Shown one piece after another: positions 28,723-39,071 of a stretch of 39,862 nt of DNA. Origin of the DNA: a bacterium (GTDB lineage: Bacteria > Sysuimicrobiota > Sysuimicrobiia > Sysuimicrobiales > Segetimicrobiaceae). The DNA is taken from NCBI GenBank assembly GCA_035945995.1, contig DASYZR010000169.1, positions 1 to 39,862 of the forward strand, read 5' to 3'. Position 1 is the first letter of the stretch. Every line of letters begins with the position of its first letter. The notes under the pieces are model-generated. The model saw only the letters and a list, made by a program, of their open reading frames with translations, searched no databases and was not told the origin of the DNA. A program made the position numbers and the translations under genes.

Positions 28723-29025
28723 ATGGTCGTGAAGACAATGGTCGTGCACGCGGCCGACATTGACGAGGACGTCCTTCGCGGAAACGGCACCGGCACCATT
28801 ACCGTGCGTCGGCACATGTTCGAAGACGAGGGCGGGGAGGCCACGCCGGCGTACGCGGTGTCGGCCGACTTCTTCCCGATGGGCACCGACCAGAGAAATT
28901 TTCGCACCCTCGAGCATGCCATGGGGTTCGTGTCCAGCCTGGTGCTTGGCGCGGAGCAGGCGGTGCGGCGGCTGCGCCTCAAACAATCGACGATCGAGAT
29001 TCAACTCGAGATCTCAGACCCGTAG
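28723..29025 (+). CDS. Unknown 100-aa protein under the Tad-type operator
   Basis: 100 residues from ATG 28723, with GGGAGGAAAGG upstream. No signal peptide or membrane segment; acidic overall. Segments DEDVLRGNGTGTITVRRHMF, PAYAVSADFFPMGTDQ and FVSSLVLGAEQAVRRLR suggest a small alpha/beta soluble domain. No family was recognised. A second ATG at 28738 is in frame. Its promoter carries the element shared with the pilins, so it is probably expressed with them. Followed 16 bp later by the GAF-GGDEF gene. Confidence 0.7.
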   Translation: MVVKTMVVHAADIDEDVLRGNGTGTITVRRHMFEDEGGEATPAYAVSADFFPMGTDQRNFRTLEHAMGFVSSLVLGAEQAVRRLRLKQSTIEIQLEISDP

Positions 29026-29041
29026 GAGTCCGCGGGCGTCG

Positions 29042-30031
29042 ATGAGCATATCGAACGGGTCGGAGAGGGCGCTCGCGGTCCTGGCCAAAATCGCGACGGA
29101 GTTTTCGGCGCTCACCGTCAGTCTGCCGGAGTTTCTCAATCGCGTCCTCAAGGTCCTGGGCCAAGAGATCGGCTTCGACCAGTGCCTGGTCGCGCTCGTC
29201 GACGAGCGGGGGGCGGGGCGCCTCGTCGTGCGGGCCGCCTCGGGGCTCGCCTCTCCGCGGGTTGGGAAGCCTCTCCCCCGCGGTGTGGACGAGGACGTGA
29301 TCGCAACCGGTCGGGCCGCGCTGATTCCCGACCTGGCGGCCGCGGGCCACGCCGACCCGGATTTTCGCTCCTGCATCTGCGCGCCGATTCTCGTGCACGG
29401 GCGCGCGATCGGCGTGCTGAACGCCTACCGGCCGGCTCCGCGGGACTTCACCGGGCAGGACTTGAACCTCCTCGTCGTCGTCACCCATTACTTCTCGAGC
29501 GCCATTGAGCTGGCCCACCTCCACGAGCAGCCGTTGGCCGGGCCTCAGGCGGATCCGCTCACCGACCTGCCGACGGAGCGCACATTTCGGGAGGCCGTAG
29601 AGCAAGAGCAGCGCCGGGCGCACCGGCATCGGGAGCCGCTCGTGGTGTTGTGGCTGGACATCGACAATTTCGCGGCGATTCGCGAGGAGTACGGCGCCGC
29701 GCGCGCCGACACCCTGCTGCGCAATCTCGCCAAGGTGCTGCGCGGGATGCTCCGCGAGTCGGACCTGGTCGCCCGTGCGCCGAGCGGCTTTCTACTCCTG
29801 CTTCCTCGGACGCCCAGGCGGGCGGGGGCGAGCGTCGCGGAGCGCATCCGCCAGCGCGCGCGAGGGGTCGTCGCGGAAGGCGGTCCCTCCATTACGGTCA
29901 GCCTCGGCGTCTCCGAAGCGCCGCAGGACGGCACCGCCGCCGATGCGTTGCTGGCCGCGGCCGGGGAGGCCCTGGAACAGGCCCGGCGGCACGGGGGCGA
30001 TCGCGTTCAAACGGCCCCGGCCGCAACCTGA
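29042..30031 (+). CDS. GAF domain plus degenerate GGDEF domain protein
   Basis: 329 residues. The GAF domain is about 10-160 (FDQCLVALVDERGAGRLVVR, CAPILVHGRAIGVLNAYRP). A GGDEF domain starts at DPLTDLPTERTFREAV (171). The active site is degenerate: where GG(D/E)EF should be, PSGFL (247-251) stands, and the YGHxxGD region reads YGAARAD. The inhibitory-site motif RxxD is kept (R238-E-S-D241), with the usual 5-residue spacing to the GGDEF position. So it likely binds c-di-GMP as a receptor without making it (inference). Starts 16 bp after the 28.7-kb gene. Confidence 0.85.
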   Translation: MSISNGSERALAVLAKIATEFSALTVSLPEFLNRVLKVLGQEIGFDQCLVALVDERGAGRLVVRAASGLASPRVGKPLPRGVDEDVIATGRAALIPDLAAAGHADPDFRSCICAPILVHGRAIGVLNAYRPAPRDFTGQDLNLLVVVTHYFSSAIELAHLHEQPLAGPQADPLTDLPTERTFREAVEQEQRRAHRHREPLVVLWLDIDNFAAIREEYGAARADTLLRNLAKVLRGMLRESDLVARAPSGFLLLLPRTPRRAGASVAERIRQRARGVVAEGGPSITVSLGVSEAPQDGTAADALLAAAGEALEQARRHGGDRVQTAPAAT

Positions 30032-32389: not shown

Positions 32390-33199
32390 ATGACCGATCC
32401 TACCACTGCAATCTTGCCGGCCGGCGGGCCGCAGCCACACCCGGGCGTTGCAATGGCGTCGCCTCAGGTGGCGGCGTTGGAGTCACCCCAGGGGGGCGGC
32501 CCGCACGAGGGGGCGACCGCTTCCGAGCGCATTCAGATCGTGGTGGTTGACGACGAGGATCTCTTCCGCGACTTGCTCTCGAGCGTCCTCTCAGCGTCGG
32601 GCAACGTGGACGTGATCGGCGCCTTTCCCGATGCCGAGACCGCTATGGAAGCGACGCGGCGGCTGCATCCCAGGGTCGTCGTGCTCGATATCGAGCTAAG
32701 CGGGTCCCTCAACGGTATTCAGGCGGGCCTCCTGATTCAAAAGGAGTTTCCCGACATCGGCATCGTCTGGCTCTCCGCTTACAAGCGGCCGTACCTGCCC
32801 GTGTCGTTCCAGCAGCAAATGACCAGCGGGTGGGCGTATCTGCTCAAGAAGTCGGGCACGAACGTGCGGACGCTGGCCGCGGCGATCGACGGGGTTGCGC
32901 GCGGGCTCGTCGTCCTCGATCCTGAGATCGCCGGCTCGATCCACCGCCTGCTCAACGCCTGGATTCCGCCGTTGAGCCCGTCGCAGTATGACGTGCTCGC
33001 CTTGATGGCCCAGGGCCTCGGCAACGCGGCGATCGCGCAGGCCCTGCACTTGCCCGAAAAGTCGGTGGAAAGCCAGGTCAATCAGATTTACCACCATCTC
33101 CGGCTCCACCGCGGCGTGGACGCAAAGCATCGTCGGGTCGAGGCGGTGCTCCGGTATCTCCGTGAGGGCTCCGCTCACACCAGGCCGGACCGAGCCTAA
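32390..33199 (+). CDS. NarL/LuxR-type response regulator
   Basis: 269 residues. A Pro/Gly-rich N-terminal tail (1-45) precedes the receiver, with acidic pocket Asp54-Asp55, phospho-acceptor Asp100 (VVVLDIELSG), Ser128 and Lys152. The HTH at the C-terminus reads LSPSQYDVLALMAQGLGNAA, IAQALHLPEKSVESQVNQIY. It is a paralogue of the regulator at 35122, sharing the unusual ...GWAYLLK..., ..ARG-VVLDPEI and SVE-QVNQIY features. Starts ATG 32390. No kinase is adjacent in the same operon. Confidence 0.92.
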   Translation: MTDPTTAILPAGGPQPHPGVAMASPQVAALESPQGGGPHEGATASERIQIVVVDDEDLFRDLLSSVLSASGNVDVIGAFPDAETAMEATRRLHPRVVVLDIELSGSLNGIQAGLLIQKEFPDIGIVWLSAYKRPYLPVSFQQQMTSGWAYLLKKSGTNVRTLAAAIDGVARGLVVLDPEIAGSIHRLLNAWIPPLSPSQYDVLALMAQGLGNAAIAQALHLPEKSVESQVNQIYHHLRLHRGVDAKHRRVEAVLRYLREGSAHTRPDRA

Positions 33200-33211
33200 C
33201 GCCGGCTTTTT
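33184..33211 (+). terminator. Intrinsic terminator after the 32.4-kb regulator
   Basis: GCCGG (33184-33188) pairs with CCGGC (33202-33206), followed by TTTTT (33207-33211). The left arm overlaps the last codons. The stem is short with a 13-nt loop. Confidence 0.5.
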
Positions 33212-33310
33212 GTCGTAAGGTCGCCCCCACCCGGTACCGTAGAAATCGTTGAATTTATCCGTCTATATCTGCGCGATTAAGGGAACAATGGTTGCTGTTA
33301 GTGCTCGCCT

Positions 33311-33390
33311 TCACGAACGGGCAAACCTGGGGCAATCCAGGGACGCAAAGCCACGGGGCCCTCCAACAGGGGTCAGCCGGGCTGCCGAAG
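33311..33390 (+). ncRNA. Class I cyclic-di-GMP (GEMM-I) riboswitch
   Basis: The conserved GEMM-I core is visible: GGGCAAACC (33320-33328), a hairpin CCUGGG-GCAA-UCCAGG with GNRA loop (33327-33342), the hallmark GGACGCAAAGCC (33341-33352), then a second GC-rich stem and the closing GCCGGGCUGCCGAA (33376-33389). The RNA is followed at once by a ribosome-binding site AGGGGG and GTG 33401, so c-di-GMP probably controls translation of, or transcription into, the CAP-domain gene. An A+T-rich promoter region lies at 33241-33290. Class and ligand come from established knowledge of the motif. Confidence 0.9.
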
Positions 33391-33400
33391 GGGGTGGGTA

Positions 33401-33937
33401 GTGGCTCGACCCCGCCAGCGCAGCGTTGCAGTCCTCCTGCTTGTCATTTCGGCCGCGTATTTCGTGGGCCCCGGTATCGTGGCCGGTTCGGCCCAATCGT
33501 CCCCCAACATAGGGTCCGTCGTGATCTCCCTCGGTCAGCGTGCCTCTCAGAGCGTCGACGAGCCAAGTGCGGAGCAGCAACTGCTCGACATGCTAAATGC
33601 CGTGCGCGCGCAACGCGGCCTCCGCCCGTTGCGGATGGACCGCGCGCTCCAATCGGTGGCGCGGGCGCATTCGCGCGACATGGCGACGGGGGGCTATATT
33701 GGTCACGGGTCCGTTTCGGGCGGGTCCTTTGTCGACCGGCTGTCTGGCGTGGTCTCCCGGGGCCTCGTGGGCGAGAACGTCGCGTTCGCGGTCAACCCCC
33801 CGACGGCGCATCGCGCGCTGGTCGCGAGCCCCCTGCATCTTGAGAATATGCTGGAGCCGCGGTTCCACCGCGTGGGCGTCGGCGTCTGTTCGGCGGGACA
33901 GATGGGCGTAGCGGTGACGCAGGATTTCGCTGAGTAG
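33401..33937 (+). CDS. Secreted CAP/SCP-domain protein
   Basis: 178 residues from GTG 33401. Hydrophobic signal segment (VAVLLLVISAAYFVGPGIVA), then a CAP domain from about 58: LLDMLNAVRAQRGLRPLRMD, ARAHSRDMATGGYIGHGSVS (His102), VGENVAFA (Glu125), SPLHLENMLEPRFHRVGVG (His146, His156) and VTQDF at the end. These match the CAP1-CAP4 motifs of bacterial SCP-like extracellular proteins. The role in bacteria is not settled. Its leader is a c-di-GMP riboswitch, placing it in the biofilm/surface programme. The 3' end overlaps the opposite-strand sensor gene by 146 bp. Confidence 0.9.
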   Translation: MARPRQRSVAVLLLVISAAYFVGPGIVAGSAQSSPNIGSVVISLGQRASQSVDEPSAEQQLLDMLNAVRAQRGLRPLRMDRALQSVARAHSRDMATGGYIGHGSVSGGSFVDRLSGVVSRGLVGENVAFAVNPPTAHRALVASPLHLENMLEPRFHRVGVGVCSAGQMGVAVTQDFAE

Positions 33938-38660: not shown

Positions 38661-39071
38661 ATGCGCGTGGGACGATGCCGCCGGACCGGCGTCACCGTCC
38701 TCGTTTTCATCCTTGCCGCCTCCTGGGTCCTGCCGTTCGCCCACGCGGCCGCCGCGCCGGCGCCGCCGGTCGACGAGACGAGAGGGATCCTCATCCAGGC
38801 GAGTTGCACCGAGGCGACCTGTACGACGCGGATCCTGGCGGTCATGATGGCGGCGGGCCCGCAACGATTCCTTGCGTCGGCGGCCGCGACGGCCGTCTAC
38901 GTCGGCAACCAAAGGGCCGCGCTGTCATCGCTCGACGGTTTCATCGGCATCGGGGTGTCCGTTCTGTCTCAACGGCTCGACTCGCAGCAGGTCGCTGGGC
39001 GGATCGACGTCTTCTTGTTCCGGATACGGCTCACGATTGCCCCTCCGGTCCACGAGACCGGAAACCGCTGA
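38661..39071 (+). CDS. Secreted protein, paralogue of the 39.3-kb gene
   Basis: 136 residues from ATG 38661, with AAGGGGGGAAG upstream. The signal peptide is clear (TVLVFILAASWVLPFAHAA). Mature part: GILIQASCTEATCTTRIL, AAGPQRFLASAAAT, then VLSQRLDSQQVAGRIDVFLF. These segments recur in the same order in the next gene, so the two are paralogues. The two cysteines in ASCTEATC are shared. No known family recognised. An upstream in-frame extension to 38451 is non-coding in appearance. Confidence 0.75.
   Translation: MRVGRCRRTGVTVLVFILAASWVLPFAHAAAAPAPPVDETRGILIQASCTEATCTTRILAVMMAAGPQRFLASAAATAVYVGNQRAALSSLDGFIGIGVSVLSQRLDSQQVAGRIDVFLFRIRLTIAPPVHETGNR

What the first reader, a model, noticed from the sequence alone, without database searches (positions are those of the whole stretch)
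33311..33400. GEMM-I c-di-GMP riboswitch in front of a secreted CAP-domain gene
The conserved GGACGCAAAGCC core, GNRA-loop hairpin and closing GCCGGGCUGCC strand are all present, and the riboswitch abuts the ribosome-binding site. GEMM-I riboswitches commonly control pili, chemotaxis and surface proteins; a CAP/SCP-domain target is less usual. It ties the cluster to c-di-GMP.
Basis: partly seen in the sequence, partly recalled or inferred. Interest (0 to 1): 0.68.

Follow-up and report, generated by a model that had tools for sequence, protein, structure and literature searches.

The report
c-di-GMP riboswitch controlling a CAP gene
A standard RNA sensor for the bacterial signal cyclic di-GMP sits so tightly against a gene for a secreted CAP-domain protein that its closing stem can hide the ribosome-binding site, and the same pairing recurs across a little-known bacterial order, making CAP proteins a repeated target of this signal.

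Summary
Window 33310-33390 (+) is a canonical class-I c-di-GMP riboswitch aptamer (RF01051: 69.1 bits, cut-off 35). The scan's own label, RF03167 'c-di-GMP-I-GGC' (59.7 bits, cut-off 59), is a near-neighbour call: the window has A, not G, at the base that sets that variant apart. Contact bases G33320, A33347 and C33385 fit c-di-GMP, not cGAMP. The gene behind it (GTG 33401-33937) encodes a secreted CAP (PF00188, YkwD-like) protein.

The pairing recurs. In the 12 genomes of the family, 13 of 25 CAP genes have such an aptamer directly upstream; three genera of a sister family have it too; 78 other organisms with related CAPs do not. CAP is the commonest target family found.

Best mechanism (inferred): a Vc2-like translational OFF switch, in which helix P1 runs into the Shine-Dalgarno. 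This layout occurs at 7 of 13 riboswitch-linked CAP genes but only 1-2 of 78 other copies. About 20 other copies carry terminators placed for ON control, in three genomes right beside a CAP gene. So c-di-GMP may lower CAP while raising neighbours. The window's riboswitch should control CAP alone, not the adjacent Tad cluster. Ordinary riboswitch, unusual recurrent target.

The parts
33310..33390 (+). class-I c-di-GMP riboswitch aptamer (RF01051)
   Evidence: RF01051 69.1 bits at 33310-33389; RF03167 59.7 bits at 33311-33390; model R1 88.4 bits
33320..33320 (+). ligand-contact base equivalent to Vc2 G20 (J1/2)
   Evidence: alignment; column invariant in 60 aptamers; junction positions after PMC6274999; Vc2 numbering partly from own knowledge
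33347..33347 (+). ligand-contact base equivalent to Vc2 A47 (J2/3); the GGC variant family has G here
33385..33385 (+). ligand-contact base equivalent to Vc2 C92 (J1/3)
33290..33312 (+). 5' strand of extended P1, complementary to Shine-Dalgarno and start region
   Evidence: minimum-energy fold; pairing as strong in only 2 of 1000 shuffles
33390..33411 (+). 3' strand of extended P1; contains Shine-Dalgarno 33390-33394 and start codon 33401-33403
33401..33937 (+). secreted CAP-domain gene, 178 aa, GTG start
   Evidence: PF00188 E 7e-15; YkwD family TIGR02909 83.9 bits, below its cut-off of 171
33192..33208 (+). terminator-like hairpin after the upstream response-regulator gene
   Evidence: pattern scan; 0.5 expected by chance in the scanned stretch

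Best explanation
The element is a canonical class-I c-di-GMP riboswitch that regulates translation of one gene, a secreted CAP-domain protein. When c-di-GMP binds the three-way junction it stabilises the closing helix P1. Here P1 is extended and takes in the Shine-Dalgarno and the start codon, so ribosomes cannot load: an OFF switch of the Vc2 kind. At low c-di-GMP P1 opens or fails to form and CAP is made. SHOWN: the aptamer, its contact bases, the target gene, the recurrence of the pair, and the complementarity of the P1 5' strand to the Shine-Dalgarno. INFERRED: ligand binding, the OFF direction, and that CAP acts in the low-c-di-GMP state.
For: Covariance scores far above cut-off. All three contact bases canonical and invariant in the family. 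Riboswitch-CAP pair at 13 of 25 CAP genes in 12 genomes and in three sister-family genera. Shine-Dalgarno directly after the aptamer and start 12-15 nt on in seven CAP leaders. Fold puts Shine-Dalgarno and start in P1, pairing reached by 2 of 1000 shuffles. P1 flanks match their own partners across 85 aptamers (0 of 2000 permutations). Vc2 is a translational OFF switch that depends on P1 (PMC9262584). The genome encodes at least ten GGDEF stretches with intact motif.
Against: No experiment. The whole leader folds no better than its shuffles (z -0.14), and with a shorter leader the minimum-energy fold differs and hides the Shine-Dalgarno in a local hairpin instead. The long 20-bp P1 is special to the window; orthologs have shorter ones, and pairing beyond the Shine-Dalgarno is not significant in most of them. 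No anti-P1 partner is conserved in this type. The transcript start is unknown.
Confidence: 0.62

Rival explanations
1. Same riboswitch, opposite sign: in the ligand-free RNA the Shine-Dalgarno is hidden by a local hairpin (GGGGGU with ACCCC), and aptamer folding frees it, so c-di-GMP turns CAP ON like the pilus and surface genes of the regulon.
For: The local hairpin is the minimum-energy solution with a shorter leader. Class-I copies can be ON switches, e.g. Bc2 (PMC4933901). About 20 other copies in the family look ON.
Against: P1 itself takes up the Shine-Dalgarno in all seven leaders of this type, so a folded aptamer should hide it, not free it.
Confidence: 0.2
2. The aptamer is a decayed or non-functional copy and CAP is expressed independently of c-di-GMP.
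For: No sigma-70-like promoter found nearby, and one related CAP leader (L054) keeps only a 21-bit remnant, so decay occurs.
Against: All contact bases and helices are intact; the sister-species ortholog (67% protein identity) keeps a 66.8-bit aptamer and the same abutting layout.
Confidence: 0.07
3. It is a variant aptamer with another ligand: the RF03167 GGC variant or a cGAMP (GEMM-Ib) sensor.
For: RF03167 reaches its cut-off by 0.7 bits.
Against: The variant-defining G in J2/3 is A in the window and in all 60 family aptamers; the base that is A in cGAMP sensors is G. The other intact GGDEF sequences seen carry the ordinary GHxxGD motif.
Confidence: 0.04

Closest known systems
c-di-GMP-I riboswitch (RF01051, GEMM-Ia), with Vc2 of Vibrio cholerae as the translational OFF example (PMC9262584)
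   Same: Three-helix aptamer, GNRA loop, contact bases, P1 as the switching helix.
   Different: Target is a CAP-domain gene; Shine-Dalgarno and start codon lie in P1 itself. Ligand response untested.
c-di-GMP-I-GGC (RF03167)
   Same: Overall aptamer; score just over cut-off.
   Different: J2/3 base is A, not G.
Bc2 riboswitch of Bacillus thuringiensis in front of 'cap' (PMC4933901)
   Same: Class-I c-di-GMP aptamer before a surface protein gene.
   Different: There 'Cap' means collagen adhesion protein, not the CAP domain; control is by terminator and ON.
YkwD-like bacterial CAP proteins (PF00188, TIGR02909)
   Same: CAP domain with invariant H102, E125, H146 in 15 relatives.
   Different: Below the YkwD cut-off (83.9 against 171 bits); spore link not tested.

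Membership tests
c-di-GMP-I riboswitch (RF01051) | covariance score over the curated cut-off | tested here: met
   69.1 bits against 35
c-di-GMP-I riboswitch (RF01051) | contact bases G20, A47, C92 | tested here: met
   G33320, A33347, C33385 by alignment; Vc2 numbering partly from own knowledge
c-di-GMP-I riboswitch (RF01051) | P2 hairpin with GNRA loop, P3, closing P1 | tested here: met
c-di-GMP-I riboswitch (RF01051) | tetraloop receptor in P3 | not tested
   no analysis made
c-di-GMP-I riboswitch (RF01051) | binds c-di-GMP | not testable with these tools
   needs in-line probing or ITC
c-di-GMP-I-GGC (RF03167) | score over the curated cut-off | tested here: met
   59.7 against 59 bits, marginal
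c-di-GMP-I-GGC (RF03167) | G at the J2/3 contact position (read from the model consensus; that the name encodes it is my inference) | tested here: not met
   A33347; A in all 60 family aptamers
cGAMP riboswitch (GEMM-Ib) | A in place of G20 | tested here: not met
   G33320; G20A gives cGAMP binding, PMC6274999
translational OFF riboswitch, Vc2 type | Shine-Dalgarno hidden by the aptamer-stabilised helix | tested here: inconclusive
   predicted in the full-leader fold, not with a shorter leader
translational OFF riboswitch, Vc2 type | expression falls when c-di-GMP rises | not testable with these tools
   needs a reporter assay
CAP superfamily (PF00188) | Pfam score over cut-off | tested here: met
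   56.3 bits against 21.1
CAP superfamily (PF00188) | conserved His/Glu residues of the CAP cavity | tested here: met
   H102, E125, H146 invariant in 15 relatives; assignment to the cavity from own knowledge, not from a structure

The most novel reading that the evidence does not exclude
In this bacterial order c-di-GMP moves secreted proteins in opposite directions through the same aptamer: CAP proteins are switched off by capture of the Shine-Dalgarno in P1, while other surface and pilus genes are switched on by terminator-type copies. In one locus of G004, G007 and G009 the two outputs stand side by side (aptamer, CAP; then two aptamer-terminator units before a secreted repeat protein). 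CAP would then be a factor of the free-living or dispersing phase.
Probability: 0.3. Interest if true: 0.55.

Novelty: new member of a known kind. Interest (0 to 1): 0.36.

Why it matters
Bacterial CAP proteins are widespread and mostly without a known role. A recurrent riboswitch in front of them places them in the c-di-GMP motile/sessile decision and makes that role testable. The loci where a CAP leader with Shine-Dalgarno capture stands next to terminator-type copies would be a compact natural test of how one aptamer gives opposite outputs. The riboswitch itself is ordinary.

Tried and rejected
(1) RF03167 'GGC' label: rejected on the J2/3 base. (2) An antisense riboswitch in sister-family loci L053, L055, L056, where the aptamer first seemed convergent with CAP: rejected, CAP is on the same strand as the aptamer; those loci were simply not oriented. 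(3) cGAMP as ligand: rejected. (4) Sign of control in the second type of CAP leader: unresolved. In the sister family the P1 5' strand GGCUUCCG has a perfect 8-9 nt second partner CGGAAGCC before the Shine-Dalgarno, which points to a two-state design but not to its sign. (5) A single origin of the riboswitch-CAP pair: a 33-protein tree needs at least 3 gains or losses on starred branches, but shuffled labels do nearly as well (45 of 500 as low) and the G005:C43 row was truncated, so little rests on it. (6) Phage origin: no phage match; plasmids not searched. (7) Earlier reports of CAP-domain genes under c-di-GMP riboswitches: none in the held library, which misses most subscription journals. 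(8) A simple gene caller chose wrong reading frames at first, the window's included; replaced by a codon-usage score.

Full report
WHAT IS THERE. The only Rfam match in the window is at 33311-33390 +. The scan names it RF03167 (c-di-GMP-I-GGC, 59.7 bits, cut-off 59), but the parent family RF01051 gives 69.1 bits against a cut-off of 35 for the same place. In the alignment the GGC consensus reads ACGCGAAgCC where the window reads ACGCAAAGCC. That base lies in the junction J2/3 next to the ligand. With the two other contact bases the window reads G33320, A33347, C33385, the canonical c-di-GMP set, and these columns do not vary in 60 aptamers of the bacterial family. I therefore file it as ordinary c-di-GMP-I, not as the GGC variant and not as the cGAMP type.

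THE GENE. GTG 33401-33937 encodes 178 aa with a signal peptide (by eye) and a CAP domain at 62-176 (PF00188, E 7e-15). H102, E125 and H146 are invariant in 15 relatives. It resembles YkwD-like proteins but stays below that family's cut-off. The best PDB sequence matches are 4ifa and 4d53. The gene stands alone: a weak terminator-like hairpin follows the upstream response-regulator gene, and the next gene is on the other strand.

IT RECURS. The 12 genomes of the window's family carry 94 c-di-GMP-I matches, one of them below the cut-off, and 25 CAP genes. Thirteen CAP genes lie directly behind an aptamer on the same strand: two each in G000 (the window's own genome), G002, G004, G005, G007 and G009 and one in G003. 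Three genera of a sister family (L053, L055, L056) have the same arrangement. In 76 first downstream genes of aptamers, CAP is the commonest Pfam family (12), before a sigma factor (7), T2SSE/PilT-like ATPases (4) and HD-domain proteins (4). Pilus, sigma, sensor and surface genes thus make up the regulon, as is usual for this class, and CAP is an additional recurrent target.

HOW IT PROBABLY WORKS. In seven CAP leaders of the window's type the aptamer end ..GCCGAA runs straight into the Shine-Dalgarno (GGAGG, GGGGG or GGGGC) and the start follows 12-15 nt after the aptamer; the bases just 5' of the aptamer are CCUCC-like and can pair with it as a continuation of P1. In the window the predicted P1 joins 33290-33312 with 33390-33411, taking in Shine-Dalgarno and start codon, with pairing reached by 2 of 1000 shuffles. 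With a shorter leader the prediction changes, so the transcript start matters. Across 85 aptamers the P1 flanks pair better with their own partner than with others (0 of 2000 permutations). Ligand binding depends on P1 in Vc2, the textbook translational OFF switch (PMC9262584), so OFF is the simplest reading. The layout is tied to CAP: 7 of 13 CAP leaders against 1 of 78 others (Fisher p 1.6e-6). That count corrects one script label by hand (G002:C29, whose 'terminator' lies inside the gene), and it becomes 2 of 78 if G005:C9 is read with its nearer ATG. Most other copies have terminators; about 20 of these begin within 3 nt of the aptamer end and so compete with P1, the logic of the ON switch pilM in PMC9262584.

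A LOCUS WITH BOTH LAYOUTS. In G004:C57 (L120) the order is aptamer, CAP, aptamer with terminator GCUGGAC..GUCCGGCUUCUU, aptamer with terminator GCUGGAC..GUCCAGCUUCUU, then a secreted repeat protein; G007:C39 and G009:C4 share it. If both inferences hold, c-di-GMP lowers CAP and raises its neighbour.

OTHER CAP LEADERS. A second type (G000:C15, G004:C73, G007:C49, G009:C53, G003:C189 and the sister-family loci) has a longer leader. In the sister-family loci the P1 5' strand GGCUUCCG has a perfect alternative partner CGGAAGCC before the Shine-Dalgarno. The sign of control cannot be read from these.

THE CLUSTER. The Tad-pilus genes, a GGDEF gene, response regulators, CAP and a histidine kinase keep their order in sister species G002:C11; in the more distant genomes checked the CAP neighbourhood differs. 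The local GGDEF gene is degenerate (APSGF, and SSSGL in the sister species), so it is an unlikely c-di-GMP source; at least ten other GGDEF stretches look intact. No EAL domain was found in the genome.

VERDICT. Real and correctly recognised: an ordinary riboswitch with an unusual, repeatedly used target. Ligand binding and the OFF direction are inferred and need the bench.

Noticed in passing
window 28985-30031 (+): GAF-GGDEF gene beside the Tad cluster has APSGF in place of GG[DE]EF, and its sister-species ortholog is degenerate too; it may be a receptor or inactive.
   Followed up: partly
window 38688-39071 (+): Encodes a homolog (34-36%) of the secreted repeat-protein family that sits behind terminator-type c-di-GMP-I copies in G004:C57, G007:C39, G009:C4 and behind single copies in G001:C27 and G002:C8; the window copy has no riboswitch.
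   Followed up: partly
L120 1458-1870: Tandem c-di-GMP-I riboswitches, each with its own terminator, before one secreted repeat-protein gene; also in G007:C39 and G009:C4.
   Followed up: partly
L148 600-660, L174, L175: Three CAP genes of genus g3 have no ATG, GTG or TTG in frame close to the Shine-Dalgarno; the conserved frame suggests an AUU or AUC start inside a hairpin.
   Followed up: no
leaders of 84 family aptamers: TTGACA occurs in 18 leaders against 0.9 expected in shuffles, and another set shares GGGCATA; by eye the CAP leaders have neither a TTGACA box nor a shared alternative.
   Followed up: no
L127, L130, L135, L136, L137, L138, L153: A sigma factor with regions 2, 3 and 4 lies behind c-di-GMP-I copies in seven cases, so the signal may reach further genes through it.
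   Followed up: no
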